This document shows, piece by piece, positions 5,537 to 34,712 of a stretch of DNA of 36,848 nt. Made by a program: the position numbers and the translations under genes. Location: positions 1 through 36,848 of the forward strand of contig CAKQDQ010000013.1 in assembly GCA_934229335.1 (NCBI GenBank), given 5' to 3'. The notes under the pieces are model-generated. The model made no database searches. It saw nothing but the letters and a program-made list of their open reading frames with translations, and was not told where the DNA came from. Each line of letters starts with the position of its first letter. Positions within the stretch are counted from its first letter, which is position 1. Source of the stretch: an uncultured Prevotella sp. (lineage in GTDB: Bacteria > Bacteroidota > Bacteroidia > Bacteroidales > Bacteroidaceae).

Positions 5537-7335
5537 TATTAGCTGCAGGCATGGGAAAACGCCTTGGCAAATATACACAAAACAATACAAAATGTATGGT
5601 GGAGGTGAATGGGGTAAAACTCATAGATCGGGTTATTAACCAACTTGCCCAATTTAACCTCAGCAAACTTATCTTAGTAGTAGGATATGAGGCGGATAAC
5701 CTTATTAACTATATAGGCAACAGATATGACAATATTCTAAAGATTGAATATATCCGCAACGACATCTACGACAAAACAAACAACATATATTCTCTTGCAC
5801 TTGCAAAAGAAGAACTATGTAAAGATGATACCATATTACTTGAAAGTGATATAATATTTGAAGACAAGATGCTCAACTTGCTCATCAATCATCCAGACCA
5901 TGACCTTGCGCTTGTTGCCAAGGCTGAGAGTTGGATGGATGGTACTATGGTATGCATTGATGTAAATCGTAATATCACAAGTTTTGTATCAAAAACAGAT
6001 TTCGATTTTAATTATTCTGGCAAGTATTATAAAACTGTCAATATATATAAGTTCAGCAAGGATTTCTGCAAGAACTATTACGTACCGTTCCTTGAAGCCT
6101 ACTGCAAAGTACTTGGAAATAACGAATATTATGAACAGGTTTTACAAGTATTGGTACATCTGCATAAGTCGCCACTCAAGGCTCTGCCTATAAGCAAAGA
6201 GAAATGGTATGAGATAGATGATGCACAAGACCTTGATATCGCTTCAACAATCTTTGCTGCGGACAATGAGAAGTATTCTATCTACCATAAACGCTACGGA
6301 GGATTCTGGAGGTTTCCCAAAATACTTGACTATTGCTACCTGGTAAATCCTTACTTCCCAACCCCAAGGATGAAAGAAGAGATAAAAGCGAACTTCGATG
6401 TATTGTTGGAGAATTATCCTTCTGGTATGAATGTGAATTCGTTGTTGGCAGCAAAATACTTTAAGGTCTCACAGGAATACATTATTGTAGGCAACGGTGC
6501 TGCAGAGCTAATAAAATGTGTTATGGAGAGACACGCGATGGATAAAGTCGGAGTGATATACCCAACATTCGATGAGTATCCCAACAGACTAACCCAAGAG
6601 AATATAGTGCCACTTATCATAGACAGCAAGGACTTCCGCTACAGTGCAGACAACGTGATGGAATACTACGAAGATAAGCACATATCGTTGCTGCTGCTTG
6701 TCAATCCTGATAATCCTTCAGGCAACTATATAAAGCGTTCTGACGTGCTACGTCTCGTAGCATGGTGTAAGACGAGAAATATAAGAGTACTACTTGACGA
6801 GAGTTTCGTTGATTTTACCGATGATTTTGAAAACAACAGTCTTCTCGATGACACTATACTTGTGACATATAGCAATCTCATGATAATGAAGTCCATCTCT
6901 AAGTCATATGGTGTGCCGGGTTTGCGTCTTGGTGTATTTGCGACCTCCGACAAAGAGATGATAGCCCACATGAAGAAAGAAGTCAGCATATGGAACATCA
7001 ACTCTTTCGCGGAGTTCTATATGCAGATATATGGCAAATACGAGAAAGACTACCACAAAGCCTGCCAACTCTTCATAGAAGAGCGCAATCGCTTCCAAAG
7101 CCTTCTTGAACAGATACCTTTCCTTCATGTCATGCCGTCACAGGCAAACTACTTCCTTTGCGAGGTAACTGAGAAATATACTTCAGCAGAACTTGCAAAC
7201 ATTCTAATGCAAAACGACATTATAATCAGCGATTGCAACCGCAAAACCCACATGCAAAAGAAACAGATAATACGTCTTGCTGTACGCAGTAAGGAAGACA
7301 ATGACCTTTTGATACAAAAGCTACAGGGACTATAA
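5524..7335 (+). CDS. Nucleotidyltransferase-PLP aminotransferase fusion
   Basis: 603-residue two-domain protein. Residues 1 to about 240 are a sugar-phosphate/choline-phosphate nucleotidyltransferase: AIILAAGMGKRLGKYTQNNT is the nucleotide-binding loop, followed by KCMVEVNG, and LLESDIIFED is the metal site. Residues about 255-603 are a fold-type I aminotransferase of the HisC/CobD group: VGNGAAELI, LLVNPDNPSGN, LLDESFVDF, and the PLP lysine K460 in SISKSYGVPGLRLG. A CobD-like domain could decarboxylate O-phosphoserine to phosphoethanolamine, or transaminate an aminophosphonate precursor. The first domain would then make the CDP-activated form for LicD. Fusions of this kind are known, for example PntC in phosphonate pathways. 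No phosphoenolpyruvate mutase is visible here, so the substrate is open. The 13-nt overlap with licD shows tight coupling. Confidence 0.85.
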   Translation: MQAIILAAGMGKRLGKYTQNNTKCMVEVNGVKLIDRVINQLAQFNLSKLILVVGYEADNLINYIGNRYDNILKIEYIRNDIYDKTNNIYSLALAKEELCKDDTILLESDIIFEDKMLNLLINHPDHDLALVAKAESWMDGTMVCIDVNRNITSFVSKTDFDFNYSGKYYKTVNIYKFSKDFCKNYYVPFLEAYCKVLGNNEYYEQVLQVLVHLHKSPLKALPISKEKWYEIDDAQDLDIASTIFAADNEKYSIYHKRYGGFWRFPKILDYCYLVNPYFPTPRMKEEIKANFDVLLENYPSGMNVNSLLAAKYFKVSQEYIIVGNGAAELIKCVMERHAMDKVGVIYPTFDEYPNRLTQENIVPLIIDSKDFRYSADNVMEYYEDKHISLLLLVNPDNPSGNYIKRSDVLRLVAWCKTRNIRVLLDESFVDFTDDFENNSLLDDTILVTYSNLMIMKSISKSYGVPGLRLGVFATSDKEMIAHMKKEVSIWNINSFAEFYMQIYGKYEKDYHKACQLFIEERNRFQSLLEQIPFLHVMPSQANYFLCEVTEKYTSAELANILMQNDIIISDCNRKTHMQKKQIIRLAVRSKEDNDLLIQKLQGL

Positions 7336-7464
7336 GAATACTGTCGCAACATAACAACAAAAGCAGTATACTTTTTCCTAAACAAGGAAAAGGTATCCTG
7401 CTTTTGCAATATTTTCAGATGTTTGACGTTATATTAAATATCAGTAAGCATTATTCAACCTTAT

Positions 7465-8232
7465 ATGAAAATAACAATAATAACAACAACATATAACAGC
7501 GCCACAACACTTCGTGACACCTTTAACTCTATTCTATCACAAACCTACCAAGAATTTGAATACTGGGTTATTGATGGTGGATCAAGTGACGGAACAGTAG
7601 ACATAATAAAGGCATTTGAACCTAAATTTAACGGTCGAATGCATTGGATTTCAGAAAAGGACAAGGGATTGTATGATGGAATGAATAAAGGCTTTAAGCG
7701 GGCGACTGGTGACGTAATAGGGATATTAAACAGTGATGATTTCTTTGCATCCTGCGATATCCTTGAAACTATAGCTAAGGCGTTTATTAATGACAAAGAA
7801 GGGAAATTAGACGCTATTTATGGAGATGTCCATTTTGTAAAGCCTAATAACCTTAATAAATGCATACGCTATTACAGTTCTAAAAAATTCAGACCATGGT
7901 TGTTACGATTTGGCTATATGCCTGCACATCCATCCTTCTATGCACGTAGAGAGATTTTCGATAAACATGGTTTATATTCTCTTGAATACAAACTTGCAGC
8001 AGATTATGATATGATGGTAAGACTGTTTTGTAAGCATAAAATCAATGCAAAATACATAGAGAGAGATTTTGTAACGATGCGTACGGGAGGAGCAAGTACA
8101 CGCAATATTTATCGTCGCTTACTGCTAACCAAAGAAGACGCCAAAGCATGTCGTAAACATGGTATTTATTCTAATTTTATAATGTGTTCTGTGAAATACT
8201 TCAGCAAAGTCCTTGAATTTATACATAAATAG
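7465..8232 (+). CDS. Family 2 glycosyltransferase
   Basis: 255-residue inverting GT-A transferase of the WcaA/colanic-acid type. The N-terminal nucleotide-binding motif is ITIITTTYNSATTLRDTF, followed by VIDGGSSDGTVDI and the DxD-like metal motif GILNSDDFFAS (about residues 86-96). The acceptor side has GYMPAHPSFYARREIF and AADYDMMVRL, the usual catalytic-base region. The length is normal and no membrane segment is present. It stands 129 bp after the fusion gene and is the last plus-strand gene before the minus-strand WecA-type gene. It is probably part of the same polysaccharide pathway but could be separately transcribed. Confidence 0.9.
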   Translation: MKITIITTTYNSATTLRDTFNSILSQTYQEFEYWVIDGGSSDGTVDIIKAFEPKFNGRMHWISEKDKGLYDGMNKGFKRATGDVIGILNSDDFFASCDILETIAKAFINDKEGKLDAIYGDVHFVKPNNLNKCIRYYSSKKFRPWLLRFGYMPAHPSFYARREIFDKHGLYSLEYKLAADYDMMVRLFCKHKINAKYIERDFVTMRTGGASTRNIYRRLLLTKEDAKACRKHGIYSNFIMCSVKYFSKVLEFIHK

Positions 8233-8375
8233 AAGTACAAAATCTATACACTACTATCGTTAAAGGCATTGATTTTTATGCATTTTGCTTACCGTATGCC
8301 CCCGAGGGGAGCAATTACCGTATTTAAAGGAGCCCCAAAAGTATTTCTACTATGGCAGAATAGTTATTATATGCA

Positions 8376-9503
8376 TTAAATCGTATAACTACGTTTATGC
8401 TCTATACCAGTACTATTTTCTCTTCGAGCAATAAACCAGTTTATAACTATATGTATAATTACGAACAGTACTACGTCTGCAACGATAATCAACGTCTGAC
8501 TTAGGTATGAGGCAATAAAATAGTTAGACAGTATAAATACAACTGACATTAAAAGTATTACTATCATTGTCATATGCCCAGTCAACCCTGCACGTAACAG
8601 TTTATGATGAATATGGTTTTTATCAGGAAGGAATGGATTTCTACCGTCTCTTATACGTGAGGCAAAAACACGAACTACATCAAACATAGGTATAACAAGA
8701 GTACTTATGGCTACTATTCCCACATTATGAAATTCACTGTTCCAAACAGGATTACGTTGCCAGAAATGCAACACAAGAAACGCTAAAGTAAAACCTAATG
8801 TCAGCGATCCTGCATCTCCCATAAAAGTTTTATACTTCTTATTGACAACATTGAAATAAAAGAATGCCATTACTACGCCAAGATATCCTACAGACAACAT
8901 GGCCCACACAACATCCCCAACAATTAAACACAAAATCGCAATCATTGTCAAAGATATGCATGATAAACCTGATGCCAAACCATCAATTCCATCTATTAGG
9001 TTCATCGCATTAGTAACATATACAACCATAAGAACTGTCACTGGCATTCCAACCCACCATGGCACTGCATCCAGATAAAAAACATGCGAAAAATCTGCAA
9101 CCCATAGACCGCTTACGCACAGTATAGTAGCACTGAGTATTTGTATCATGAATTTTACTTTATACCCAACACCATGAATATCGTCATAAATACCTATCGT
9201 ATAAAGCATCATAACACCTGCCATATATGCAAAGAAATGTTGAGCAATTGTTCCATTACATATATTCTCTATGTCATACCCTAGTCGTAGTAGAACTACA
9301 ATCACAATAGATGTCGTTATTGAAACGACAGGAAGAAACAATACTCCACCAACACGTGGGACAGGGAACTGATGTATTTTTCGTGCATCAGGAACATCAA
9401 AAAGATGCAATTCCTTTGATAAGTTAACAAGGTATGGAGTTAAGAATAATCCTAAGATACTTGTTAGAAAAAATATAAAAAATAGTATAGTTAAAGTTAA
9501 CAT
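8376..9503 (-). CDS. wecA: WecA/TagO-type polyprenyl-phosphate sugar-1-phosphate transferase
   Basis: 375-residue polytopic membrane enzyme of the MraY/WecA (PNPT) superfamily. It transfers a HexNAc-1-phosphate from UDP-HexNAc to undecaprenyl phosphate and so starts lipid-linked glycan assembly. Family motifs are in order: DARKIHQFPVPRVGG in the first cytoplasmic loop, NAMNLIDGIDGLASG, FMGDAGSLTLGF, and the basic DKNHIHHKLLRAGL loop. About ten to eleven hydrophobic helices are visible. It faces away from the polysaccharide operon and diverges from the monotopic initiator at 9619, so the cluster carries two unrelated initiating enzymes. GlcNAc is the usual substrate in the family, but specificity is not proven here. 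Confidence 0.9.
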   Translation of the reverse strand: MLTLTILFFIFFLTSILGLFLTPYLVNLSKELHLFDVPDARKIHQFPVPRVGGVLFLPVVSITTSIVIVVLLRLGYDIENICNGTIAQHFFAYMAGVMMLYTIGIYDDIHGVGYKVKFMIQILSATILCVSGLWVADFSHVFYLDAVPWWVGMPVTVLMVVYVTNAMNLIDGIDGLASGLSCISLTMIAILCLIVGDVVWAMLSVGYLGVVMAFFYFNVVNKKYKTFMGDAGSLTLGFTLAFLVLHFWQRNPVWNSEFHNVGIVAISTLVIPMFDVVRVFASRIRDGRNPFLPDKNHIHHKLLRAGLTGHMTMIVILLMSVVFILSNYFIASYLSQTLIIVADVVLFVIIHIVINWFIARRENSTGIEHKRSYTI

Positions 9504-9618
9504 AATTTGGTCTTTTATTATAAATAAACGAACAAACTGACGATTTATTGTATTTTATACATCAATACAATAAAATCAATTCAATTACGTTTTATACATA
9601 CAACTTTATATACAATAT

Positions 9619-13392: not shown

Positions 13393-14394
13393 ATGCCCAA
13401 AAGATATCTTGATCCCAAAGCAGACCTTACATTTAAGAAAGTGTTTGGTGAGCATCCTGAACTTGTTATAAGTTTACTCAATGCCCTTCTTCCATTTAAT
13501 ACACCTGAAGAAGATATTAAATCTGTAGAATACTTGGCACCAGAATTGGTGCCAGACAATCCATTCCGCAAGAACAGTATTGTAGATGTAAGATGCAAGG
13601 ACCAGCGTGGCAGGCAGTTTATTGTAGAAATGCAGATGATATGGTCAAAGGAGTTCATGCAACGTGTGATGTTCAACTCTGCCAAAGCATACGTTCGCCA
13701 ACTTGACCGTAACGAAAACTACGAACTGTTAGAGCCAGTCTATTCATTGAATCTCGTTAATGATATATTCGAGAAGGATATACCCGAATACTATCATTAC
13801 TACCGTATGGTGCACGAAATGTACTCTGATAAAGTGATTGATGGTCTCCACTTAATATTTGTAGAATTACCCAAATTCAAACCACATAACTTCTCCGAGA
13901 AGAAGATGCAAGTGCTTTGGCTTCGTTACCTTACGGAAATCGAAGAAAAAACGCGTAACGTTCCGCAAGAACTGCTTGACAACCCTGACATAAACAAGGC
14001 CTTAACCGTTGTAGAAGAATCAGCCTACTCTGATGCCCAACTCCTTGGCTACGATAAGTTCTGGGATATCATACGTACTGAAAAGACTTTATATAACGGC
14101 GCCTTGCGTAAAGGATATGCAGAAGGCATGGAGAAAGGCATGGAGAAAGGCATGGAGAAAGGTATGGAGAAAGGTATGGAGAAAGGCATGGAGAAAGGCA
14201 TGGAGAAAGGTATGGAGAAAGGTATGGAGAAAGGTATGGAGAAAGGCATGGAGAAAGGTATGGAGAAAGGTAGAGAAGATGAAAAACTCAAAACGATAGA
14301 GTCCATGCTTGCAGAGCATTTACCAATAGAAGTCATCGCCAAGTGTGTACGTCTCACCGTTGACGAGATAAATGATATAATAAATAAATCGTAA
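13393..14394 (+). CDS. Rpn-type PD-(D/E)XK nuclease family protein with GMEK repeats
   Basis: 333-residue member of the PDDEXK_2 / Rpn (recombination-promoting nuclease, putative transposase) family. The N-terminal signature is DPKADLTFKKVFGEHPE. The nuclease core shows D65 in SIVDVRCKD and the E79-x-Q81 variant in FIVEMQM, with a Lys-rich helix after it. The middle (about 100-240) has the usual YSLNLVNDIF and HLIFVELPKF segments. Residues 245-292 are twelve exact GMEK repeats, followed by a short helical C-terminus (about 293-333). Family members commonly carry charged G-x-x-K or E-G-x-x-x-G repeat tails. It has its own promoter and terminator and no transposon ends, so it is a stand-alone gene. 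The role (DNA cleavage, RecA-independent recombination or defence) is not shown by sequence alone. Confidence 0.88.
   Translation: MPKRYLDPKADLTFKKVFGEHPELVISLLNALLPFNTPEEDIKSVEYLAPELVPDNPFRKNSIVDVRCKDQRGRQFIVEMQMIWSKEFMQRVMFNSAKAYVRQLDRNENYELLEPVYSLNLVNDIFEKDIPEYYHYYRMVHEMYSDKVIDGLHLIFVELPKFKPHNFSEKKMQVLWLRYLTEIEEKTRNVPQELLDNPDINKALTVVEESAYSDAQLLGYDKFWDIIRTEKTLYNGALRKGYAEGMEKGMEKGMEKGMEKGMEKGMEKGMEKGMEKGMEKGMEKGMEKGMEKGREDEKLKTIESMLAEHLPIEVIAKCVRLTVDEINDIINKS
14125..14268 (+). repeat. 12 x 12-bp minisatellite inside the Rpn-like gene
   Basis: Twelve back-to-back copies of GGYATGGAGAAA. The only variation is one synonymous C/T at the third base (order C C C T T C C T T T C T). Each copy encodes GMEK. 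Because 12 is a multiple of three, gain or loss of copies by slippage changes tail length without frameshift. The repeat also keeps other frames open, which produces spurious overlapping reading frames. Confidence 0.97.
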
Positions 14395-14457: not shown

Positions 14458-14502
14458 AAACATTCCCGGCAAGATCACTATTGACTCTTTCCGGGAATGT
14501 TT
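14458..14502. terminator. Bidirectional hairpin terminator
   Basis: Perfect 12-bp stem AAACATTCCCGG (14458-14469) / CCGGGAATGTTT (14491-14502), loop 21 nt. It lies between the converging Rpn-like gene (plus) and the nitroreductase gene (minus). On the minus strand it runs into TTTTTCTTTATTATT, a good terminator tail. Confidence 0.88.
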
Positions 14503-14570: not shown

Positions 14571-15227
14571 TTATTTCTGTATACCCCAAGTAATTTTCTT
14601 AGTGTCCCATTTGTCTTTGGGATGTAAAGGCTCGTCAGGATAACCTATGATTATGCCGTTAAGCGGTATCAGATTGCCTGGGAGTTTTAGTGTTCTTGAG
14701 ATGCCCATCACCTTTTTCTGAATAGGATAGATGGTTGTCCAGCAAGCACCTAAGCCCATAGCGTTGGCAGCAAGTAATATGTTCTCAGAGACAGCAGAAA
14801 GGTCTTGTATCCACAGTTCACGACCTTGACCATCTGCCATGCGAGTAGTATCGGCACAAACAAAGATGAAGAGTGGCGTCTTCTTAATGTCTTCAGCATG
14901 ATACTTGTTAGATGCCGCATACATTTCTATGTCTTTTTGGTCTTTCAAAACCACGAAATGCCAGGGTTGCAAGTCACCAGATGTTGGCGCTGCCATACCT
15001 GCACGAAGTAATGCCTCAATCTTAGCATCTTCTACAGGTTGCTGCTTAAACTTACGAACGCTTGTTCTTGAAAATATATTCTGAAATACTGCTGCCGCAG
15101 ATGCGTCGTTACCTATTGCTTTTTCTACTGCTTCTGGTATGATAACGGTATTTGTTGTCTGACCATATACCGAAGCAATGCTTGCGACTGCTATCGCAGC
15201 CACAAGCAAAGACTTTAGTTTATTCAC
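14571..15227 (-). CDS. Exported nitroreductase-family flavoprotein
   Basis: 218-residue protein with an N-terminal signal peptide (MNKLKSLLVAAIAVASIASV, probable cleavage after YG at residue 22) and then a complete nitroreductase domain. FMN-contact motifs are RTSVRKF (54-60), PTSGDLQPWHF (81-91) and MGLGACWT (157-164), and the C-terminus keeps the IIIGYPDEP strand. Most relatives are cytoplasmic NAD(P)H-FMN reductases, so a secreted form is unusual. It begins 29 bp after the second DUF4374-like gene on the same strand with no terminator between, so it is the last gene of the TonB-receptor operon. A plausible role is reduction of an iron-siderophore or other imported ligand in the periplasm; this is inference, and the electron donor there is unknown. 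Confidence 0.85.
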   Translation of the reverse strand: MNKLKSLLVAAIAVASIASVYGQTTNTVIIPEAVEKAIGNDASAAAVFQNIFSRTSVRKFKQQPVEDAKIEALLRAGMAAPTSGDLQPWHFVVLKDQKDIEMYAASNKYHAEDIKKTPLFIFVCADTTRMADGQGRELWIQDLSAVSENILLAANAMGLGACWTTIYPIQKKVMGISRTLKLPGNLIPLNGIIIGYPDEPLHPKDKWDTKKITWGIQK

Positions 15228-15256
15228 AAATAAAACTAAATTAAAATAAAAAGGAT

Positions 15257-16591
15257 TTACTTCTTTAGAATTGTTATAGCCTTTAGCAGGTTTGCATTGC
15301 TAAATGTCATAAACGCAGTAGCTACACCGGTGTTGGCATCAATCTTATAAATAGTTGGCACTACAGTAGATGCTGTTGCGCGTGTGGTAGACTTGCCACC
15401 ATGATTCCAACCACCTCCAGCAGAACCAGAGTCGCTACCAGAACCACCACTCATGCTTGTTGGAGCAGCAACAGGCAGATAGTAAGCACCATCATAACCG
15501 TCACCCCAACCTAAAGATACGCTTGTAGGGTCTGGCAAACCTGTAACCCAAGTAAGAGTTTGTGCTTCCATGTCAACTACAGCCATCTTACCAGATGCCG
15601 CCATATTACCATACTGAGTCTTGTCAAGATAGAACTCCAGAAGGAACTTGCTGCCGCTGATATGGAATGCCTTACGGAAACGATAGCCATCAGCCTTGCT
15701 GAATATGTTAAACTTATAGTCTTTGTCAAACTCTGTCTCGCCTTTCTTGATGCGCAATGCGCCAACCTTGCTGTCTTTGGCACTTGAACCTGAGAATACA
15801 TAGACATTGCCGTTATCATCTGTACCGCTCTGTGTATAGCGAACAGAACGCATAGCACCAACAGATGTACCGATACGGTCGTCATACAGCACCTTCTTTA
15901 TATTGAGACTATAGTCACAAATAGCCACTACGGCAGAGTCACGGTTGCTATAGTTCAATACCATTGCTACCTGATTGTTACCCATATCCACAATGTTGGA
16001 GATGTTAGGGTTCACCTCATCAATAGCATACTGTGGCAAGTTGATAGAGATATTGTTGCCTGCACCCGTAGCGTCTACAACCATAGCGTATGGTGAACTT
16101 ATTTGAGCTGCATAAGAATAGTTGCCGAAAGTACCAGTGTTACCAAAGGCAGTCACTTTAACAGGACTTCCTACTTCAACCAACTTACCATTTTCGACCT
16201 TGTAACTATGAAGACCAGCCTGCTTGTCTCCTAAGCCTTCTGCAGACGCGCCACGGGCATATACATAACCTGTAAAGACACCACTTGTCTGATTGTACGT
16301 CATCTGTGTAAAACTATCAAAACACTTTGCGGCATCTTCGGCACCGTAGACGTTTTCGTTGTTCTTGGCTGTAGACAAGTCATTGTAGATCTTCATGTAT
16401 GCTCCGCCTGACAGGTCTGTTTCTACGTCGCCTGCTGTTACTATGAAACTTAGATCTTTCGGATCTACCTTCGTCGGTTCGCTTGTTCCTGGTTGTCCGT
16501 TTCCTTGTGTTGGTTCATCGTCAGAGCATGATGTGAATGTCATGCAAGTTGCGAGCGCGACAAGCGCTGTTGAGTAAAATAATTTCTTCAT
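15257..16591 (-). CDS. DUF4374-like (XusB-like) surface lipoprotein, copy 2
   Basis: 444-residue lipoprotein. The start at 16591 (MKKLFYSTALVALATC) is preferred over the longer in-frame Met at 16624, because it puts a proper signal and lipobox in place, with Cys22 in MTFTSCSDDEP. A Gly/Pro/Glu-rich linker follows, then a beta-rich body consistent with a propeller. Near residue 310, FRKAFHISGSKFLLEF and MAVVDMEAQTLTWVTGLP match the same segments of its neighbour, so the two are paralogs. A Gly/Ser-rich loop (about 395-412) interrupts the C-terminal blade. DUF4374-type proteins include the siderophore-binding XusB of Bacteroides; the ligand here is not known. It lies 63 bp after copy 1 and 29 bp before the nitroreductase gene. 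Confidence 0.75.
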   Translation of the reverse strand: MKKLFYSTALVALATCMTFTSCSDDEPTQGNGQPGTSEPTKVDPKDLSFIVTAGDVETDLSGGAYMKIYNDLSTAKNNENVYGAEDAAKCFDSFTQMTYNQTSGVFTGYVYARGASAEGLGDKQAGLHSYKVENGKLVEVGSPVKVTAFGNTGTFGNYSYAAQISSPYAMVVDATGAGNNISINLPQYAIDEVNPNISNIVDMGNNQVAMVLNYSNRDSAVVAICDYSLNIKKVLYDDRIGTSVGAMRSVRYTQSGTDDNGNVYVFSGSSAKDSKVGALRIKKGETEFDKDYKFNIFSKADGYRFRKAFHISGSKFLLEFYLDKTQYGNMAASGKMAVVDMEAQTLTWVTGLPDPTSVSLGWGDGYDGAYYLPVAAPTSMSGGSGSDSGSAGGGWNHGGKSTTRATASTVVPTIYKIDANTGVATAFMTFSNANLLKAITILKK

Positions 16592-16654
16592 TTTGTTTCT
16601 TTTTGGATTTATATTATAATTCAATAATTTTCTTTCAGCAATACTACTTGTGGT

Positions 16655-17992
16655 TTATTTGTTTAGTTTTCCAAGTGTTCTAATTTCCGTTACGCCCTTG
16701 ATAGTTATTCCTTTGGTTGCTACACCCGTGTTAGGGTTTACAAGATAAATGGCGGCATCCTGTCCAAACTGTGTGATTGGGAGATAAATAAGTCCGTCTG
16801 CAAACATTGGCACTCCGCCTGTTTCTGCTCCTGACGTTATCATGTTCTTAGCTGGTATACCACTAATCCAAGTAAAGTTCTTGCTTTCCATGTCAACAAG
16901 AGCAAACTGGTGTCCTGGCGTTATTGTCGTAACGTTCTTCTCGTTGTATATTTCGAGTATGAACTTACTGCCTGTCATGTGCCATACTCGGCGGAACTTA
17001 TACCCGTTGGCAGGTGTTTGCAGGTCGAAGTAATAGTCTTTGTCGAATTCCTCAGCACCCCTCTTTATGCGCAAAGCACCAGCCTTATGTGTCGTGGCAG
17101 TGTTGAAGGCATTAGAGAATACGTACACAGTTCCATCGTCTGCCTTATGCACTTCGTGGAGCACCTGTGAACGATAGTGTCCAGCGGCATAACTGATACG
17201 ATCGTCACGATATACTCTCAGCACGTTTAGGTCACCGTCCATCTTGGCTACCCAGCAACTGTCAGGGTATCTTACCTCACCTACACTTGAGCCATCGCCC
17301 GTGCCTGTTTGGTGGAAGGCAGACTGTACCATCGCTGTTAAGAACGTTCCATCACCATTATCCACAATACTTGAGAACGTTACCTGCTGTCCGTTGCCCG
17401 TTATGTCTTCAGTCCAAATGGTTTTTGTATGGTCAAGTCTTACACCACTTTCCGTGATATTCCAGAAAGCGAATGTCGCACCGTCGTTGCGAGTACCGTC
17501 ATTTGACAACTGACCTCCTACGCTCGTAACCAACTGACCATTGAAGAAACCATAGTTAGAGAAACGTGTGTCTACGCGGAACTCACCGAGTTTTGACAGT
17601 TGAGCATTGTCTGATGTCCAGCGTAGTCCATATCCTAAGCCAGCGAACTGCTGTTGATACACCATGCCTATAGCGTCGTGGTCACTGAACACCCATGTAT
17701 AGTTGGTCTGTGGCAGTTCCATTATGTTGTCTTTAATGTTAAGGTCGCCAGTCGTCAGACTGTTGGTCTGCATGATATACTCAGTGCCCTGGTCAGTCTT
17801 CACAGCAATAAAGTATGAGCCTTTGCCATTTTGTACCGTTCCTTCATTGCCCGTTCCGCCTCCTTGTGATGGTTCGTCAGCTGGAGAATCATCGCCACCG
17901 CCACAGCCTGTAAGCAGGGGAGACATTCCGAAAAGACACAAGAATAGCCCTGTCGCCGTCATTTTCGACAGCGAGAAATAAGTTTTCTTCAT
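16655..17992 (-). CDS. DUF4374-like (XusB-like) surface lipoprotein, copy 1
   Basis: 445-residue lipoprotein with a long signal sequence and lipobox LLTGC (Cys30), followed by GGGDDSPADEP and a Gly-rich tether, which suggests surface display. The body is beta-rich and begins GSYFIAVKTDQGTEYIMQ. Other recognisable parts are YSYAAQ-like blade edges, FRRVWHMTGSKFILEIY and FALVDMESKNFTWISGIP, which align with the neighbouring copy. XusB-type proteins bind iron-siderophore complexes at the cell surface and pass them to a TonB receptor; I infer a similar job from family and order. It follows the receptor gene by 41 bp on the same strand. Confidence 0.78.
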   Translation of the reverse strand: MKKTYFSLSKMTATGLFLCLFGMSPLLTGCGGGDDSPADEPSQGGGTGNEGTVQNGKGSYFIAVKTDQGTEYIMQTNSLTTGDLNIKDNIMELPQTNYTWVFSDHDAIGMVYQQQFAGLGYGLRWTSDNAQLSKLGEFRVDTRFSNYGFFNGQLVTSVGGQLSNDGTRNDGATFAFWNITESGVRLDHTKTIWTEDITGNGQQVTFSSIVDNGDGTFLTAMVQSAFHQTGTGDGSSVGEVRYPDSCWVAKMDGDLNVLRVYRDDRISYAAGHYRSQVLHEVHKADDGTVYVFSNAFNTATTHKAGALRIKRGAEEFDKDYYFDLQTPANGYKFRRVWHMTGSKFILEIYNEKNVTTITPGHQFALVDMESKNFTWISGIPAKNMITSGAETGGVPMFADGLIYLPITQFGQDAAIYLVNPNTGVATKGITIKGVTEIRTLGKLNK

Positions 17993-18033
17993 TCTTAGTA
18001 TGTATTTTTTTGATTATGTTTTTCTTTCCACTC

Positions 18034-20229
18034 TTATCGTTTGTAGAACACATAACGGAATTTAACAGAGAAATTCCGTCCAGGTTTCTGCAAACTATAA
18101 TTGTCGTAGAGTAAGGCATCGGTAAAGTTATTCGCCTCTACTGACACGTTGTATCTACCATTCTGTATGGCATATACGAGGTTTGCATCGTGACTCAACT
18201 GGTTTGGTACATACAGTTTTGCACCCTCGCCCGACCATGAACGGAAGAACTTATGCACATAATGCATAGCCCATCCTATAGTAAGTTTATTGCCTTTGCC
18301 AAGCACATTTTTGAAAGTGTAGTTAGCGTCGGCACCTCCAAAAGAGTAAGGTAGATTGGGTACACGGTTGTTGTACGTTACAGACTCAGCTCCAAGCGAA
18401 TTAAACCGTTCTTTGTTGCGAGTGTTCTGTATGGAGAAATTTCCTCCAATGCTTGCCACATCCTTAAAATAATAATGCAGTCCGAGGTCTACGCCCAGTC
18501 CCAACACCTTTCCGTGGTTGGTGCTTACGGCAACACCTTTCTGCCCGATGGTCCTGATAATATAGTCGCGTACATTACGATTGTTAAAACCAGCGTCAAT
18601 GCTCAGTGTGTGAACATCGTTAAAGGTATGTTGGTAGCCAAAGTTTATGTTGATATTATCACTCTTTTCTGGTCGTAGTGTCGCGTTGCCGTCCTCATAA
18701 TCTCCATCGCCAAAGAGTTCACGGTCGGTAGGCATACGGTAGGTGCGTTCGTACGACAACTTTATCTGTAAGTCCTTGTTCAACAAGAAATAAGTGCCTG
18801 CCGCACCCCAACCGAGAGCATCATTGCCACGCTCTTGTTCCTCATAATCAGCGCGACCTGACGAAGCCACATTCACAGGGCCTTGCACTTGCGAGTTGTA
18901 GTATTTTAGGAAGGCAACAATGTTCCAGAAATCTTTAGGTATGAATTTATATGACAGTCCCAACACATTCTTACTGTTTACACGACGCATGAATGTAGAT
19001 GCGGTTTGTTGCACGTTGTTGGCTGCACTATTAGTAGTACGACGGCGATAGTGTGTGTAAGTGTCGTTAAGAGTAAAGAAATGCTGTTCACCAATGTGGT
19101 AAGTCATATTAGCCACTCCGGCAAAAGTATATCCCTTAAACTCGGCAAGCGTAGGTACTCCCTCTCCTTGGTAACTGTTAGCCTTATACTCGCCAGTCCA
19201 ACTGTAGGTACGGCTGAGTGTATCCACGTTATTAGTTTTTACAATGTCGTATCGAGCAGACAGACGGAGGTTTAATCCCTGAACACCTAAGTTGCGCTTC
19301 TCGTAAAGCAGTGATGGCGTTACCCCTTGCGCAGTGCGATACTTTCCACCAAACACAATCTTCATAAGGTTCGCGTTCTGTATCTGCGCATACTCGTGAG
19401 TATAATTGAAGCCAAGCATCAACTTGTCTGCCCATTTCTTTTCCACTAATCCAATCTGAAAGATTACCGCCTCGTTGTGGTAACGGTCATGAAAACGACG
19501 GAACCAGCCTTCCTCTTGACTTACGGCATTAGTCTGAAGGTCTGTCCATTGTGTTTTTACCTTATAGTCATTGTCAGAATAGTTCTGATATGCGTTGAGA
19601 CGGAGGGTTAACCCTTGCTTGCCAGTCCAGCCCAAAGCGAGGTTGCTACGATGCGTGTTAAACGAGCCGTAACTGTAACTTACGTCCATGTAGGTATGTG
19701 GCGAATGGTCACTAACGATATTGATGGCTCCGCCAAGAGCGTCACCTCCAAAGTCTACTGGTACAACGCCCTTGTAGACTTCTATGCGGCTGGCAAAACT
19801 TGCAGGTATGTTGTTGATACCAAAACTTGACGATGCACCCTCCATAGGCACGCCATCAATAAAGAGTTTTACGTGTTTTCCTGTAAAACCATTAAGATTT
19901 ATGTTTGCCGCAGAACCTAATCCACCGTCTTCACGCACCTTAACGCCCGACACACGGTCAAGGACGTGCGCCAAGTCAAGGTTCGTATTGCGCAGACTTC
20001 GTGTGTCCACCGCCATCACGTTGTATGCCGATGAATTAACACGCTGCACCTGATTGCCACGAACGACAACCTCTCCCAACTGGTGAGTCTTCTTAAAACT
20101 GCCACTCAATTCTGTGTGGGCTTTCTTAAAATCTACAGAGTCTTTCTTGTGCTGAGCCGATGCTATTGATGAAGTCACCAATACACATAGCACAACGAGA
20201 CCCCTACGTATGTAGTTGCTTCTTATCAT
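18034..20229 (-). CDS. TonB-dependent outer-membrane receptor
   Basis: 731-residue receptor with a signal peptide (MIRSNYIRRGLVVLCVLVTS to about residue 25). It then has a TonB-box-like LGEVVVRGNQVQ (52-63), a plug domain (about 60-170, with VLDRVSGVKVREDGGLG and NLNGFTGKHVKLFIDGVPM), and the barrel entry GGDALGGAINIVS. The barrel continues with alternating aromatic strands to the C-terminal FSVKFRYVFYKR. It lacks the N-terminal carboxypeptidase-D-like domain of SusC-type glycan receptors, so it looks like an iron-complex or cofactor importer. It is the first gene of a four-gene unit with two XusB-like lipoproteins and an exported nitroreductase. A structured leader and promoter lie upstream. 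The ligand is unknown; siderophore is favoured, cobalamin is less likely but possible. Confidence 0.9.
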   Translation of the reverse strand: MIRSNYIRRGLVVLCVLVTSSIASAQHKKDSVDFKKAHTELSGSFKKTHQLGEVVVRGNQVQRVNSSAYNVMAVDTRSLRNTNLDLAHVLDRVSGVKVREDGGLGSAANINLNGFTGKHVKLFIDGVPMEGASSSFGINNIPASFASRIEVYKGVVPVDFGGDALGGAINIVSDHSPHTYMDVSYSYGSFNTHRSNLALGWTGKQGLTLRLNAYQNYSDNDYKVKTQWTDLQTNAVSQEEGWFRRFHDRYHNEAVIFQIGLVEKKWADKLMLGFNYTHEYAQIQNANLMKIVFGGKYRTAQGVTPSLLYEKRNLGVQGLNLRLSARYDIVKTNNVDTLSRTYSWTGEYKANSYQGEGVPTLAEFKGYTFAGVANMTYHIGEQHFFTLNDTYTHYRRRTTNSAANNVQQTASTFMRRVNSKNVLGLSYKFIPKDFWNIVAFLKYYNSQVQGPVNVASSGRADYEEQERGNDALGWGAAGTYFLLNKDLQIKLSYERTYRMPTDRELFGDGDYEDGNATLRPEKSDNININFGYQHTFNDVHTLSIDAGFNNRNVRDYIIRTIGQKGVAVSTNHGKVLGLGVDLGLHYYFKDVASIGGNFSIQNTRNKERFNSLGAESVTYNNRVPNLPYSFGGADANYTFKNVLGKGNKLTIGWAMHYVHKFFRSWSGEGAKLYVPNQLSHDANLVYAIQNGRYNVSVEANNFTDALLYDNYSLQKPGRNFSVKFRYVFYKR

Positions 20230-20511
20230 ATCAGAGTTATTGCCTTTTGATGGGTAATAATTGTGGTACCATAAGGAGTATTATACGTCGGGCCTAGCAC
20301 ATTCTTTATGTATAAATACAAAAGGCATTAGTGCCTTCTATATAACAAAAAAAGGAATGATATGGGCAATGACTGTTTCTCACTTATCCGTTGCTTTTAT
20401 TCCAATCTTTTACACATTACAGACACGTCACCACACCTGATGACGCTCTTTGCGTCCGCCTCTGTGTAGCATTACAAAGTGTTTCCTCGTAAGTGGGCAC
20501 CCCTTGTTTTG
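20230..20511 (-). promoter_or_regulatory. Long structured leader of the TonB-receptor operon
   Basis: The predicted transcript start is near 20511, so the leader is about 280 nt. Given in plus coordinates, it can form a hairpin GACGC (20442-20446) / GCGTC (20452-20456), and a closing helix CACTTA (20381-20386) with TAAGTG (20490-20495) that encloses about 100 nt. An attenuator-like hairpin (20322-20337) lies downstream. I could not match it to a known riboswitch: the cobalamin boxes (GCCACTG, CCGCAACTG) and the TPP CTGAGA motif are absent. It may be an uncharacterised regulatory RNA or a simple attenuator. Confidence 0.5.
20322..20337 (-). terminator. Attenuator-like hairpin in the receptor leader
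   Basis: 6-bp stem AAGGCA (20322-20327) / TGCCTT (20332-20337) with a TTAG loop. Read on the minus strand it is followed by TTGTATTTAT, so it can end transcription about 95 nt before the receptor start codon. Its position inside the leader, not after a gene, suggests conditional termination. Confidence 0.55.
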
Positions 20512-20517
20512 CGAGTG

Positions 20518-20549
20518 CAAAGGTAGTAAGTTTTTCTCAATTACGCAAT
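20518..20549 (-). promoter_or_regulatory. Promoter for the TonB-receptor operon
   Basis: On the minus strand: ATTG (plus 20546-20549), a 20-nt spacer, then TACCTTTG (plus 20518-20525). The -7 half is an exact match and the -33 half has three of four bases. No Fur-box-like palindrome was seen beside it. Confidence 0.7.
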
Positions 20550-20766
20550 ACCTATAAATTGTGATTTCGTTTTTCCGACAGCTTGTTTCGTAAAGCGAAA
20601 TTTCCATCTTAGATAGACTTTCCTATATTTACCATTTTGACAGTCTGTTTTTGTCGCTGTTGTAAATGTCTGTTATTCAGTTGTATAGCATTTTACGGTT
20701 TTGCGTAATTCTTTTCGTGTCGTAAAAGCATAGTTATTACGATGCTATTAGATAGCAATCGCAATA
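20550..20766. other. AT-rich intergenic stretch, no gene seen
   Basis: About 217 bases between the receptor promoter and the lipoprotein terminator. It has short inverted repeats only, for example TTTTACG (20691-20697) with CGTAAAA (20721-20727). There is no open frame with family features, no tRNA-like cloverleaf and no promoter pointing into a gene. Confidence 0.5.
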
Positions 20767-20805
20767 TAATAAGGGCTCTTTCGCACTGCGAAAGAGCCCT
20801 TATTA
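20767..20805. terminator. Strong 18-bp hairpin terminator
   Basis: Perfect 18-bp arms TAATAAGGGCTCTTTCGC (20767-20784) and GCGAAAGAGCCCTTATTA (20788-20805) with a three-base loop. It lies 76 nt after the lipoprotein stop on the minus strand. The outer stem AATAAGGG...CCCTTATT is shared with the inverted repeat at 27317-27395. Confidence 0.9.
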
Positions 20806-20881
20806 CAATATTTCCCAAATTTACCATTTGTGTATGTGGCTATAAACATGGTGCGAAACACCTGTTATAACGCCACATTTA

Positions 20882-21673
20882 TTACTTCAATATCTGTGCA
20901 CGAGCAGTCTCTATCTGTGGCTTAACCTTTGCTATCTGCTCCTTCAGCTGTGCAACGTTGATAGCGTTGATTTCGTTCAGTGGAGCGAGAATTTCCGCAA
21001 GATTCTTGATGTTGTTGTCATAGTCAGCGAGGTCGTCGAGCGACAGCTTCAGCAGTGCTACGTGATAGGTGAGGTCTGAGGCACTCTTGTCGTCGAAGGC
21101 AGGCATAAACTTCTCCGCGTTCTGTGAGATAACATAGAGCTGTTCGATAACAACGGCTGTAGCAGTCTCCCAGAAGAAGTTGAGGCGACCGTTCTCCTTA
21201 GCACTTGCGTAACGAGCCTTGAAGTCCTCGGCAGTGAGATTCTCGTTGAACTTAATGCTTGGATCGTTAACGTCGGTAGCAATCTTGGTGATGGCAGCCT
21301 TGTATGCGTCGGTGTCCATCTTGTAGAGTTCAGCCACCTTAGAGTCTACTATAAGCACGCCGAGCGCGCGATATTTCTGTGACAGCAAGCTGAGATTGTC
21401 GATAGACTTGAGGTCCATGAGATAAGATGGCTTAGCTTTCAGCTCATCGTTAGACAGCGTTATTTTACCGTTAGACAGCACGCCTTCTACAGAAGGAAGG
21501 TTAGTGTAGATATTAGCGATAGAGTCCAGCTCCACCATAATCTTCTGTTCAATCTGTGACTGCTCAAATGATACTGAATCGCTCTGTACCTGTTCAGTCT
21601 GAGTTTTCTTACCTCCGCATGAAGCGAGTACCAAAGCTGCTGCGGCAGCTGCAATGAATGTCAGTTTCTTCAT
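20882..21673 (-). CDS. Small lipoprotein of unknown function
   Basis: 263-residue protein with a lipoprotein signal (MKKLTFIAAAAAALVLASCG, Cys19) and then a mostly helical body rich in Lys, Asp, Ala and Leu. No domain is recognised. Hydrophilic helices such as LYKMDTDAYKAAITKIATDV and the C-terminal INVAQLKEQIAKVKPQIETA suggest a helical bundle or short coiled coil in the periplasm. It begins 70 bp after an ABCG-like transporter gene on the same strand and precedes a strong terminator, so the two probably share a transcript and may work together, for instance in lipid or envelope transport. That role is not shown by the sequence. Confidence 0.8.
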   Translation of the reverse strand: MKKLTFIAAAAAALVLASCGGKKTQTEQVQSDSVSFEQSQIEQKIMVELDSIANIYTNLPSVEGVLSNGKITLSNDELKAKPSYLMDLKSIDNLSLLSQKYRALGVLIVDSKVAELYKMDTDAYKAAITKIATDVNDPSIKFNENLTAEDFKARYASAKENGRLNFFWETATAVVIEQLYVISQNAEKFMPAFDDKSASDLTYHVALLKLSLDDLADYDNNIKNLAEILAPLNEINAINVAQLKEQIAKVKPQIETARAQILK

Positions 21674-21743: not shown

Positions 21744-24647
21744 CTATTCCTTTCGTATATAGCGTCCTGGCACGTCGTATAGCAACATCATTATTGTGAT
21801 AATGCACATCAGTGCCATTACTCCGAGGTTGAACCACAGTGTGGGTATTGACAGGTTACCTATGCGTTTCACACTGCTGTAGAATGGTGCGTTGCCGTAT
21901 TTAGTACGTGGTGTGAGGTACACGAAGCCTGCTCGCGGCACTACATGTCCGCCAACCACCTCGCATAGCTTCTTGGCATCGTAACCAGCAAGCTGTGTTT
22001 GCAACTGTAGGTTGAAGCTATTTTTTTTTAGTCCCAGCAGTCCCTCACGTCCTAAGCGTGCTTCTTTATCCACCATCATGTTGTCGGCATTGAGAGTAGC
22101 CACGTTGCCAACGTCTATCATCTTTTGCTCCGCTTGGTCAAGATATGCGTGCAGTGAGGTGTAATCGTAGCGTCCAGCATATTCTTTCATGTCGCATACG
22201 TTTGCTACGTATGGCAGCTCGTTGCGTATTAGTGCTTTCTGAGCTTCGTCTTGCTGCTTGCCCTGCTCTGCGTCTGCCTTTAGAGATTCGTTAGCTGATT
22301 GCAGTTCGTATATCAGACCGTAGCGGTAGTACTGCGTCTCATACTTTACTTTATCCAGTTCAAAGAACTCTCTCTCGTAGGCATTGTCGGCATAGTTCTC
22401 CACGGCTAAAGCCTCATATGCCCATCTTGAGGGAATAATGTTGCCTATTGGTGGCACGTTGCCAGTAGTGCTTTTGGGCGTAAGGTCACTAAAGTTCACC
22501 ACCAGTCCGCACAGCAGTATCTGCGGAATGAGCAGTATAGGAATGGTGATGTATATAGCCACCACCGAGCTGAGGTTTTGTGACAGCAGCAACCCAGTGA
22601 GATTTGCCAACACCGCCGTTGTGAACAGTATGCCCCACCACGTTAATGTCAGGTCTGTGACACCCATTATGCTGTTGCCAACTATAATGAACAGAAGTGT
22701 TTGTAGCAGTGATACCACCGCCATAATAGCCACCTTCGACCATATATAGCTATGGTATGACAGACGAAGAAACTTCTCGCGTTTCAGTAGTGCGCGGTCT
22801 TTGATAATCTCTTCCGCCGAACCACTCATGCCGACAAACGTCGCCACTATGATAGCCATGAACATATATGATACAAAGTTCTTGTTGTCCATCAGCGAGT
22901 AGTCTTCATCAGGCGGAGTATAGCGAGTCAGTGCCGCGCAAACCATGGCGAGTAGGGGCGAGGCAAGTAGCGTGATAGCTAAATATTGCAGGTTCGTTAT
23001 TTTTGTGAGTACACTCCTTTTAACGAAAATCCACCATTGCTCTATCACCCCTGGTTTATGCAGAGACGTCTGCGGTATGTCCACCTTTTGCGGTTCGGCA
23101 AGCCCTTCTCTTGTCTCAAGATACATCTCATGCCATCTCTCTGGAGTCACCTTACGCTCGTCAGTAATCTGTCCCTTGCTGTCAAGTGCGTTCTCTTCTA
23201 TGATGTTAAGAAGCACCTCTGGGTTCACATTGCCACAAACAGGGCAGGTACTGGTATCGGCATCGGCATAGTTAGCGGCTGTCTTGAAGTATGTTATAGC
23301 TTCAATAGGGTTGCCGTCGTATACAGGGTAGCCACCTTTGTCTAATATCCACAAACGGTCAAAGAGCTTGTATACGTCAGAAGAAGGCTGATGTATGTTG
23401 GTCACTATTAGCTTTCCGCGTGACGATTGCTCTTTCAGCAGAGAGATAACGTTCTCCGTGTCGGCAGAAGAAAGACCCGATGTAGGCTCGTCGAGCAACA
23501 GCACGGCAGGCTCACGAATCAGCTCCAAGGCAATGTTCAGTCTTTTACGCTGTCCGCCAGAAATTACTTTCTTGATGGGAGAGCCTACCTTGAGGTCACG
23601 CGTCTGGTACAGTCCGAGGTCTTTCAGCGTAGTGTTCACCCTGTTGTCTATCTCCTCTTCTGACATTCCCGAAAAGCATAACTTTGCGGTGAAGTAGAGA
23701 TTCTGATACACCGTCAGCTCTTCTATCAGCATATCGTCTTGCGGTACAAAGCCTATCAGGGCTTTTGCTTCAGGACTGTTCAGCGAATATCCGTTAATCT
23801 TTACGCTTCCTTTCTGGGGTATAATGTTACCATTAAGAATAGAGATGAGCGTAGTCTTGCCCGAACCGCTGCCACCCATTATGGCTATCAGTTCGCCATC
23901 GTGAATGTCGAAGGAGAAACCGTGCAGCCCGTTGGTGCTGTTAGGATAGTGAAAGTCGATGTCTCTGCCGCTTAATATAATGCGTCCCTTCTTGTTTACT
24001 GCGTGATATTGCGCCAATATCATGGAGTAGTAAACGGGTTTTGCCAGTTTGTTCTTCAGTACTCCGCTGGTGTCCCATACCTGATACATTCCCTTTGCTA
24101 TAGGAACGTCATTGAACATCACGTTGCGTATGTCGCTTCCGTCATACGAGAATATCATTAGGTTCATCGTCTTGAGCCATAATGTCTTGATGGGAGCCTT
24201 GAATCCATCGAATCGGCACAGCTTAACGTCGCGGCTTTCGTAACCAAGCACGAAGTCAACAAAGGTGTTAAACAGCTTCTTGGGTATCCCTAACTTGTGG
24301 GCTGTTCGTGTAAATATAGGGTCGGCACTATCGAATCGTTCAGGTGTCTTAGCGCAAAATTCCAGCAGTCTGAGGAAGACCATAGCTCCTTCTTCCTGCC
24401 TTATTTCTGATTTCAGTCCTGTGCATATCCCGTCTACGATGCTTTCGATGTCGAGTCCGGGCATTTCCTCGTATAACTCGCGTAGGTCCTGATATAGCTT
24501 TATATATTGTTCTTTGTTACGTATGCTGAAATGGCTACCGAAATAGTTATCTAACATTTTGGCAGATACCTTCTTGTCTACTCCTCCTCTGGAGCAGAAT
24601 AACGCAAATAGGTTAGTTAATGCTGATATGATAGTATCTGTTACCAT
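21744..24647 (-). CDS. ABCG-like ATP-binding/permease half-transporter
   Basis: 967-residue fused ABC protein in ATPase-then-membrane order, as in eukaryotic White/ABCG proteins. Residues 1 to about 215 are an extra helical N-terminal region (LFALFCSRGGVDKKVSAKML looks TerB-like) whose function I do not recognise. The ATPase shows Walker A GGSGSGKTT (258-266), Q-loop PQDD, signature SGGQRKR (363-369), Walker B LLLDEPTSGL (383-392) and H419. A CPVCGNVNPE motif (Cys468, Cys471) follows in a linker. The ABC-2 type membrane part (about 560-967) has six hydrophobic helices, with a long hydrophilic helical domain (about 770-900) between helices 5 and 6. It is the first gene of a pair with the lipoprotein. 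Substrate unknown; lipid, hopanoid or cell-envelope export are options. Confidence 0.85.
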   Translation of the reverse strand: MVTDTIISALTNLFALFCSRGGVDKKVSAKMLDNYFGSHFSIRNKEQYIKLYQDLRELYEEMPGLDIESIVDGICTGLKSEIRQEEGAMVFLRLLEFCAKTPERFDSADPIFTRTAHKLGIPKKLFNTFVDFVLGYESRDVKLCRFDGFKAPIKTLWLKTMNLMIFSYDGSDIRNVMFNDVPIAKGMYQVWDTSGVLKNKLAKPVYYSMILAQYHAVNKKGRIILSGRDIDFHYPNSTNGLHGFSFDIHDGELIAIMGGSGSGKTTLISILNGNIIPQKGSVKINGYSLNSPEAKALIGFVPQDDMLIEELTVYQNLYFTAKLCFSGMSEEEIDNRVNTTLKDLGLYQTRDLKVGSPIKKVISGGQRKRLNIALELIREPAVLLLDEPTSGLSSADTENVISLLKEQSSRGKLIVTNIHQPSSDVYKLFDRLWILDKGGYPVYDGNPIEAITYFKTAANYADADTSTCPVCGNVNPEVLLNIIEENALDSKGQITDERKVTPERWHEMYLETREGLAEPQKVDIPQTSLHKPGVIEQWWIFVKRSVLTKITNLQYLAITLLASPLLAMVCAALTRYTPPDEDYSLMDNKNFVSYMFMAIIVATFVGMSGSAEEIIKDRALLKREKFLRLSYHSYIWSKVAIMAVVSLLQTLLFIIVGNSIMGVTDLTLTWWGILFTTAVLANLTGLLLSQNLSSVVAIYITIPILLIPQILLCGLVVNFSDLTPKSTTGNVPPIGNIIPSRWAYEALAVENYADNAYEREFFELDKVKYETQYYRYGLIYELQSANESLKADAEQGKQQDEAQKALIRNELPYVANVCDMKEYAGRYDYTSLHAYLDQAEQKMIDVGNVATLNADNMMVDKEARLGREGLLGLKKNSFNLQLQTQLAGYDAKKLCEVVGGHVVPRAGFVYLTPRTKYGNAPFYSSVKRIGNLSIPTLWFNLGVMALMCIITIMMLLYDVPGRYIRKE

Positions 24648-30848: not shown

Positions 30849-30854
30849 AGTTGA

Positions 30855-32024: not shown

Positions 32025-32074
32025 TGTTTTCTTAGGCTGGTTGGGAGCTAATGGTTGTTATCTTTATCGTAACA

Positions 32075-33058: not shown

Positions 33059-33109
33059 AATGCTGTTGTTTGGTCATTTCATTCTTTGTGTATTTAGGCA
33101 TATACTAAA

Positions 33110-34654: not shown

Positions 34655-34680
34655 TATTGGTTTGTTATGTATATCGCTTG

Positions 34681-34712
34681 CAAAGTTAGCTATTTTTTGT
34701 AAAACAACCAAT
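34681..34712 (-). promoter_or_regulatory. Promoter for the TolC-HlyD-ABC exporter operon
   Basis: On the minus strand: ATTG (plus 34709-34712), a 20-nt spacer, then TAACTTTG (plus 34681-34688). The -7 half is exact and the -33 half has three of four bases. It sits in the 67-bp gap after the GT2 gene, so the exporter can be transcribed independently. Confidence 0.75.

What the first reader, a model, noticed from the sequence alone, without database searches (positions are those of the whole stretch)
14571..20229. Xus-like importer with two lipoprotein paralogs and no inner-membrane PepSY gene
The sequence shows one minus-strand run: TonB receptor, two related DUF4374-like lipoproteins, exported nitroreductase, with gaps of only 41, 63 and 29 bp. 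In the Bacteroides XusABC system the order is receptor (XusA), one lipoprotein (XusB) and a PepSY membrane protein (XusC). Here the lipoprotein is duplicated and divergent, and the last place is taken by a predicted secreted flavoprotein. I infer a variant that captures more than one iron complex, or hands it from one lipoprotein to the other, and releases iron by reduction outside the cytoplasm.
Basis: partly seen in the sequence, partly recalled or inferred. Interest (0 to 1): 0.7.

Follow-up and report, generated by a model that had tools for sequence, protein, structure and literature searches.

The report
Two-lipoprotein iron-piracy operon with exported flavoenzyme
A bacterium likely related to Prevotella carries an operon akin to a known iron-stealing system, but with two diverged lipoproteins likely to capture the iron complexes and, where relatives have a membrane reductase, an enzyme predicted to be exported that would free the iron, behind a conserved RNA leader that matches no Rfam family and likely controls it.

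Summary
In detail: four minus-strand genes at 14571-20229 with gaps of 41, 63 and 29 bp, between a promoter-like site and a terminator-like hairpin. The receptor is a XusA homologue (E 1e-177). Both lipoproteins are DUF4374 proteins whose predicted structures match XusB crystal structures best; LP1 keeps a shortened hook loop, LP2 has none. The order receptor-LP1-LP2-nitroreductase recurs in eight other Prevotellaceae loci (two nearly identical, one receptor broken, one cut). Other loci hold receptor-LP1-PepSY and LP1-LP2-PepSY, so nitroreductase and PepSY share a slot; 4 of 8 nitroreductase genomes showed no PepSY_TM gene. Relatives of the nitroreductase sit beside NapH-like or small FMN-binding carriers in 9 of 29 loci, a plausible electron source. 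The operon begins with a conserved, paired leader RNA without an Rfam match; seven genomes have it at high score, each time before this receptor gene or its remnant. Verdict: real, a new variant of a known kind; not XusABC proper, because PepSY is missing. Siderophore import is likely; reductive iron release, the roles of the two lipoproteins and the leader's function are inferred.

The parts
20517..20552 (-). promoter-like pair (GGTATTG, 20 bases, TACCTTTGC); a TAnnTTTGC box lies 146-300 nt before the receptor start in 8 of 8 loci compared
   Evidence: that this is the Bacteroidota promoter type is recalled
20230..20400 (-). conserved leader RNA, core 20260-20394; candidate cis-regulatory RNA
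   Evidence: no Rfam family at gathering score
18034..20229 (-). XusA-like TonB-dependent receptor, 731 aa
   Evidence: Pfam Plug and barrel; XusA 9gbc_A E 1.2e-177
16655..17992 (-). LP1, DUF4374 lipoprotein, XusB-like, shortened hook loop
15257..16591 (-). LP2, DUF4374 lipoprotein, XusB-like, no hook loop
14571..15227 (-). nitroreductase-family protein with a signal-peptide-like N terminus
14461..14499 (-). terminator-like hairpin (9-bp outer stem, then TTTTTC) after the nitroreductase gene

Best explanation
The locus encodes a XusA-family TonB-dependent receptor, two diverged XusB-family lipoproteins predicted to fold as propellers, and a nitroreductase-family protein with a predicted export signal, which together likely import ferric siderophores made by other microbes and would release the iron by reduction in the periplasm. 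Shown by calls: protein families, gene order, recurrence, and that relatives carry a PepSY gene in the nitroreductase's slot. Predicted: the folds, the lipidation and the export. Inferred: LP1 and LP2 act as interchangeable surface lids of the one receptor with different ligands, LP1 more catecholate-like, LP2 hookless and perhaps for hydroxamates. Inferred: the nitroreductase replaces the PepSY reductase XusC, takes electrons from a NapH-like or small covalent-FMN carrier, and Fe(II) then enters by FeoB. Inferred: the leader RNA controls expression of the receptor gene.
Against: No binding, expression or enzyme data. The window's own genome is not held, so its electron carriers, FeoB and PepSY genes are unknown. 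Four of 8 nitroreductase genomes do have a PepSY_TM gene elsewhere, and G002 lacks the NapH-like protein. 20 of 29 nitroreductase relatives have no FMN_bind gene in the stretch held. L051 has both lipoproteins with neither enzyme next to them. Nitroreductase-family enzymes do many reactions, and a signal-peptide-like N terminus is a prediction.
Confidence: 0.6

Rival explanations
1. The importer is Xus-like, but the nitroreductase does not reduce iron: it alters the siderophore's organic part or an unrelated nitro or quinone compound, and iron is freed by another enzyme.
For: Nitroreductase-family proteins are diverse: the solved relatives include flavin reductases, BluB and albonoursin synthase. 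Exported relatives occur in many contexts, 20 of 29 without an FMN_bind gene in the stretch held. P. distasonis has an esterase in its Xus operon (PMC13142918), so siderophore-altering enzymes can take such a place.
Against: It stands in the PepSY slot, and 9 of 29 relatives sit beside one-electron-type flavin carriers.
Confidence: 0.25
2. The two lipoproteins form a relay: LP2 captures the complex at the surface and hands it to LP1, which alone is the receptor's lid. They are not two alternative lids.
For: LP2 changes faster (stem of its clade 2.23 changes per column) and LP1 is also found without LP2 (L052, L053), so LP1 may be the core partner. B. theta XusB covers nearly all outer loops of XusA (PMC13142918), so two lids at once are hard to place.
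Against: The hook differs between the two, which fits different ligands; nothing here shows contact between them.
Confidence: 0.35
3. The leader is an ordinary conserved 5' region bound by a protein or small RNA, not a ligand-sensing riboswitch.
For: Whole-leader folding is only slightly better than shuffles (z -1.5, 15 of 200 as good); the hairpin before the start codon is within shuffles in the 8 loci (33 to 210 of 500 as good); only two pairs have changes on both sides, and 9 of 10 pairs of the long helix never vary.
Against: On ten leaders 96.8% of cells pair against 29-53% when slid, and 0 of 500 shuffles reach the covariation score (the alignment was fitted to the structure). Position after a promoter-like site and variable inner length fit a structured leader.
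Confidence: 0.5
4. The locus is a vitamin B12 importer of the BtuB-BtuG kind with a BluB-like enzyme.
For: BtuG is also a propeller lipoprotein and appears below XusB in the structure lists; BtuB and BluB models are weak hits.
Against: BtuB scores 48 bits against 596 for XusA; BluB scores 65.8 against a cut-off of 150; no cobalamin riboswitch in the window.
Confidence: 0.03

Closest known systems
XusABC of Bacteroides thetaiotaomicron (BT_2065-2063; PMC13142918)
   Same: XusA-like receptor followed by a DUF4374 XusB-like lipoprotein in one operon
   Different: two diverged lipoproteins, nitroreductase in place of PepSY XusC, shorter receptor (731 aa) that aligns to XusA only from residue 107 on, leader RNA; B. 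theta XusB aligns to LP1 as a circular permutant would
Ferrichrome Xus system of Bacteroides fragilis (BF9343_4229-4227; PMC13142918)
   Same: hookless XusB; LP2 and LP1 models score highest with its crystal structures, though tied with or close to B. viscericola XusB
   Different: one lipoprotein, PepSY present
Xus operon of Parabacteroides distasonis with a periplasmic esterase (PMC13142918)
   Same: an extra soluble enzyme in the operon
   Different: esterase rather than nitroreductase, PepSY kept
NapH-like and PepSY-like flavinylated electron transfer systems (PMC8238504, passages)
   Same: the proteins beside five relatives of the nitroreductase have FMN_bind plus Fer4_5, the NapH-like make-up
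   Different: nitroreductases are not named in the paper's main text; none is adjacent in the window
hiuABC of Caulobacter crescentus (PMC13001220, passages)
   Same: TonB receptor with a predicted siderophore reductase in one operon and no ABC importer
   Different: the reductase is a PepSY protein; no surface lipoprotein is named in the passages seen

Membership tests
XusABC xenosiderophore system | receptor homologous to XusA | tested here: met
   E 1.2e-177 to 9gbc_A
XusABC xenosiderophore system | DUF4374 lipoprotein with XusB fold | tested here: met
   for both lipoproteins (predicted models)
XusABC xenosiderophore system | PepSY inner-membrane protein in the operon | tested here: not met
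   nitroreductase in that place; no PepSY among 19 window proteins scanned
XusABC xenosiderophore system | lipobox and acidic surface-export signal on the lipoprotein | tested here: met
   by pattern only: 117 of 120 LP2 relatives have a lipobox, all 117 with two or more acidic residues after it; LP1 relatives 116 of 120, 92 of them acidic
XusABC xenosiderophore system | binds ferric siderophore | not testable with these tools
   needs purified protein
XusABC xenosiderophore system | induced by iron starvation | not testable with these tools
   a recalled Fur consensus gave nothing above shuffles, which does not decide it
Hook-type (catecholate) XusB | hook loop | tested here: inconclusive
   LP1 has a shortened loop; LP2 has none (alignment A6)
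Nitroreductase family PF00881 | Pfam cut-off and R-x-S-x-R-x-F/Y motif | tested here: met
   89.5 bits against 23.5; motif in all 8 operon proteins compared; its FMN role is recalled
BluB (TIGR02476) | NCBIfam equivalog cut-off 150 bits | tested here: not met
   65.8 bits
Known Rfam cis-regulatory RNAs | match to one of 4227 models at gathering score | tested here: not met
   none in the window; with E up to 10 none of 13 matches in 20100-20950 overlaps the leader

The most novel reading that the evidence does not exclude
A new branch of iron piracy in Prevotellaceae: one XusA-type gate served by two specialised XusB lids, iron freed by a periplasmic nitroreductase fed by covalent-FMN carriers instead of a membrane PepSY reductase, and the operon switched by an undescribed riboswitch that senses iron, a flavin-related state or the siderophore itself.
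Probability: 0.25. Interest if true: 0.85.

Novelty: new variant of a known kind. Interest (0 to 1): 0.62.

Why it matters
Iron sources of Prevotella-type bacteria are poorly known (recalled). The locus names testable genes for xenosiderophore use in them, suggests that a soluble exported flavoenzyme can stand in for the PepSY reductase, sets two hook variants of XusB side by side under one receptor, and contains a candidate regulatory RNA outside Rfam whose ligand, if any, can be looked for directly.

Tried and rejected
Vitamin B12 uptake was considered and rejected on scores. A Fur box search with a recalled E. coli-type consensus gave nothing above shuffles in any of 14 upstream regions. 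Rfam was searched with the window, and with the leader stretches of L004 and L054 at E up to 10; the few matches there overlap the leader in part but stay far below the families' gathering scores. Two weak genome hits of the leader model (G159 26.2 bits, G094 24.7 bits) overlap coding genes and are taken as chance; so the L004 and L007 leaders (22.4 and 23.5 bits) are accepted only for their position before the receptor and shared sequence blocks. A first lipobox count took an earlier cysteine in LP2; it was redone with the last match and a slightly wider pattern. The idea that a short receptor marks the new branch is weakened by the canonical receptor of L059, which is also short (725 aa). 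Whether the window's own genome holds an electron carrier could not be tested. The L063 and L008 lipoproteins gave long branches that meet, so their place in the tree is unsure.

Full report
1. Observation. A promoter-like pair lies at 20552-20517 and a terminator-like hairpin followed by TTTTTC at 14499-14461, so one transcript is likely, though untested. The next gene upstream, on the same strand, ends at 20882.

2. Receptor. The best solved relative is XusA (9gbc_A, E 1.2e-177, residues 48-728 on 107-793); BtuB scores about 48 bits. The complete receptors of the nitroreductase-type loci are 715-734 aa long (window, L001, L002, L003, L004, L054, L055), against 789, 796, 792, 816 and 807 aa in L052, L053, L005, L058 and L008. 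The extra N-terminal region therefore seems to be missing here. But L051, which has two lipoproteins and no nitroreductase (735 aa), and the canonical L059 (725 aa) are short as well, so this is no clean marker.

4. Hook. PMC13142918 (outline and parts 1-4 of 8 read) links the hook loop to catecholate binding and its absence to ferrichrome binding. I placed the residues that it names on the printed B. theta sequence and compared columns in alignment A6. In the 23 LP1-type rows (window included) the loop is several residues shorter than in the 9 canonical rows; G-S-S stands in it in 20 of 23, the R-S pair is kept in 19 of 23 and Y-x-Q in 20 of 23. The four LP2-type rows lack the loop, keep R-S in four of four, and have Y-A-R in three (Y-R-Q in L004). 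This suggests different ligands but does not show them.

5. Recurrence. A scan of genome contigs with the receptor gave eight loci. Receptor-LP1-LP2-nitroreductase stands in L001, L002, L003, L004 and L007, and in L054, L055 and L057 from genome searches; L007's receptor is broken, L057's cut, and L006 ends within the operon. L057 is 96% identical to L004 over 7 kb and is hardly an independent case. LP2-type genes are rare: with the window's LP2 as query 40 of 251 family genomes matched at 1e-10, but only G002 and G121 over the full length; 6 of 299 and 7 of 398 genus genomes matched at 1e-25 (overlapping sets, G006 by a part only).

6. The last slot. Receptor-lipoprotein-PepSY stands in L005, L008 and L058, and a canonical lipoprotein gene next to a PepSY gene shows in 23 of the 26 short loci L013-L038 (L021, L036 and L038 do not show both). 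L059 (G007) has a canonical receptor and lipoprotein without PepSY next to them. L052 has receptor-LP1-PepSY and L056 has LP1-LP2-PepSY, with PepSY_TM confirmed by Pfam. L051 has LP1-LP2 with neither enzyme, L053 receptor-LP1 with other genes next. So the second lipoprotein and the terminal enzyme are separable. PepSY_TM was found in 6 of 10 genomes searched; the four without it (G001, G004, G007, G293) are all among the eight nitroreductase genomes. The other four have one: G002 beside a separate canonical locus, G490 beside another DUF4374 gene, G003 and G391 a longer type elsewhere. Completeness of these genomes is not told, so absence is soft.

7. History. In a tree of 50 lipoproteins the LP2 types form one group (100/100), the LP1 types one (87/67), and both together are parted from the canonical ones (93/80; canonical 96/99). 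The bootstrap had not settled and two outlying rows have long branches. This fits one old duplication in the operon followed by fast change in LP2. LP1-type genes without LP2 (L052, L053) would then have lost it, or the split is older than it looks.

8. Nitroreductase. The nearest solved relatives are Bacteroidota-type putative nitroreductases such as 3m5k (E 5.5e-39). The N terminus looks like a Sec signal, and 108 of the 120 listed relatives (of 919 at 1e-20) have a hydrophobic N terminus by a simple hydropathy count; of the 12 below the threshold nine seem to lack their first residues and three are at it. The R-x-S-x-R-x-F/Y motif is in all eight operon nitroreductases compared, which form one group of their own in a tree of 41 (100/100). 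The periplasm is held to lack NAD(P)H (recalled), so a donor is needed. Of 201 family genomes 38 have a relative at 1e-30; in the 29 best loci other than G002's own, 9 have an FMN_bind gene in the stretch: five are NapH-like with FMN_bind plus Fer4_5 by Pfam (L077, L087, L094, L100, L103), four are small ones found by BLAST only (L084, L086, L088, L090). NapH-like plus nitroreductase pairs also occur in L112, L113 and L124. L001 has a 136-aa FMN_bind protein directly after the operon's nitroreductase; the other operon loci do not. A full-length NapH-like protein was found in 7 of the 8 nitroreductase genomes, not in G002, in G003 on the operon's own contig. ApbE, which attaches such flavins, is in 9 of 9 genomes searched, FeoB in 10 of 10. 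PMC8238504 (passages) describes NapH-like and PepSY-like flavinylated systems as membrane electron carriers and links PepSY-like ones to iron reduction; the stem nitroreduct is not in its main text.

9. Leader RNA. The 171 nt before the receptor's start hold blocks that are nearly identical in loci whose surroundings differ. The core pairs AUAAG-n-GAG with CUCCUUAU, and two inner stems of three pairs each; two pairs change on both sides (A-U for U-A in L003 and L006; U-A for C-G in L054 and L055). On ten leaders 96.8% of cells pair, slid versions 29-53%, and the covariation score was reached in 0 of 500 shuffles (six leaders). That alignment was fitted to the structure, nine of ten pairs of the long helix never vary, and the number of pairs with double changes is reached in 118 of 500 shuffles. 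Folding energy is weak evidence (z -1.5), single-sequence folds of L001 and L055 differ from the core fold, and the hairpin before the start codon is within shuffles. The model finds strong matches (96 bits or more) in 6 of 398 genus genomes (G001, G003, G006, G281, G391, G490) and, of 251 family genomes, in G002. All seven lie directly before this receptor gene; in G281 the receptor is a remnant of 154 aa. Of the eight nitroreductase loci whose upstream region is held, eight match, two of them (L004, L007) weakly; of L005, L008, L051, L052, L053, L056, L058 and L059 none matched, though L056 lacks its upstream region. Six of the leaders built the model, so this is in part circular; L006 and L124 did not.

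10. Literature. A full-text search for DUF4374 found two papers: PMC13142918 and PMC10434189 (passages; the B. theta xus genes are 489- to 676-fold up without iron). Searches with nitroreductase, TonB, Prevotella, iron, PepSY, Xus and riboswitch terms listed no paper on a two-lipoprotein or nitroreductase-bearing Xus locus, judged by the titles, starts of abstracts and term counts shown; only the listed papers were looked at, and most subscription papers are not held.

11. Verdict. The receptor and lipoproteins belong to the XusA and XusB protein families; the system is not XusABC, because PepSY is missing, but it likely works like it. Commitment: siderophore import by a receptor with two lids and reductive iron release by an exported nitroreductase. 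The roles of the lids, the reduction and the leader's function are inferences.

Noticed in passing
L124 (G281) 4978-9523: The leader RNA precedes a receptor remnant of 154 aa, and a NapH-like plus nitroreductase gene pair lies on the same strand about 2.2 kb further on.
   Followed up: partly
L003 19754-20941: A second nitroreductase with a hydrophobic N terminus, joined to a flavin-reductase-like domain, lies about 4 kb after the operon.
   Followed up: partly
L006 8839-10089: One reading frame runs from the receptor into the C-terminal part of LP2 near a contig end: a deletion or an assembly error.
   Followed up: no
window 14110-14272: A 12-base unit repeated 13.6 times, inside the Rpn-family nuclease gene 13393-14394, where it encodes GMEK repeats.
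   Followed up: no
window 20771-20801: A perfect 14-base inverted repeat between the upstream gene and the operon, terminator-like.
   Followed up: no
window 29670-34711: Minus-strand export cluster: two ABC-2 permeases, an HlyD-type protein and an outer-membrane efflux protein.
   Followed up: no
window 21744-24647: 967-aa protein with an ABC ATPase and an ABC-2 membrane domain in one chain.
   Followed up: no
L014 1339-2739 and solved XusB chains: B. theta XusB aligns to a canonical relative in two pieces in swapped order, so it looks like a circular permutant; the paper parts read describe the hook as sitting in another blade.
   Followed up: partly
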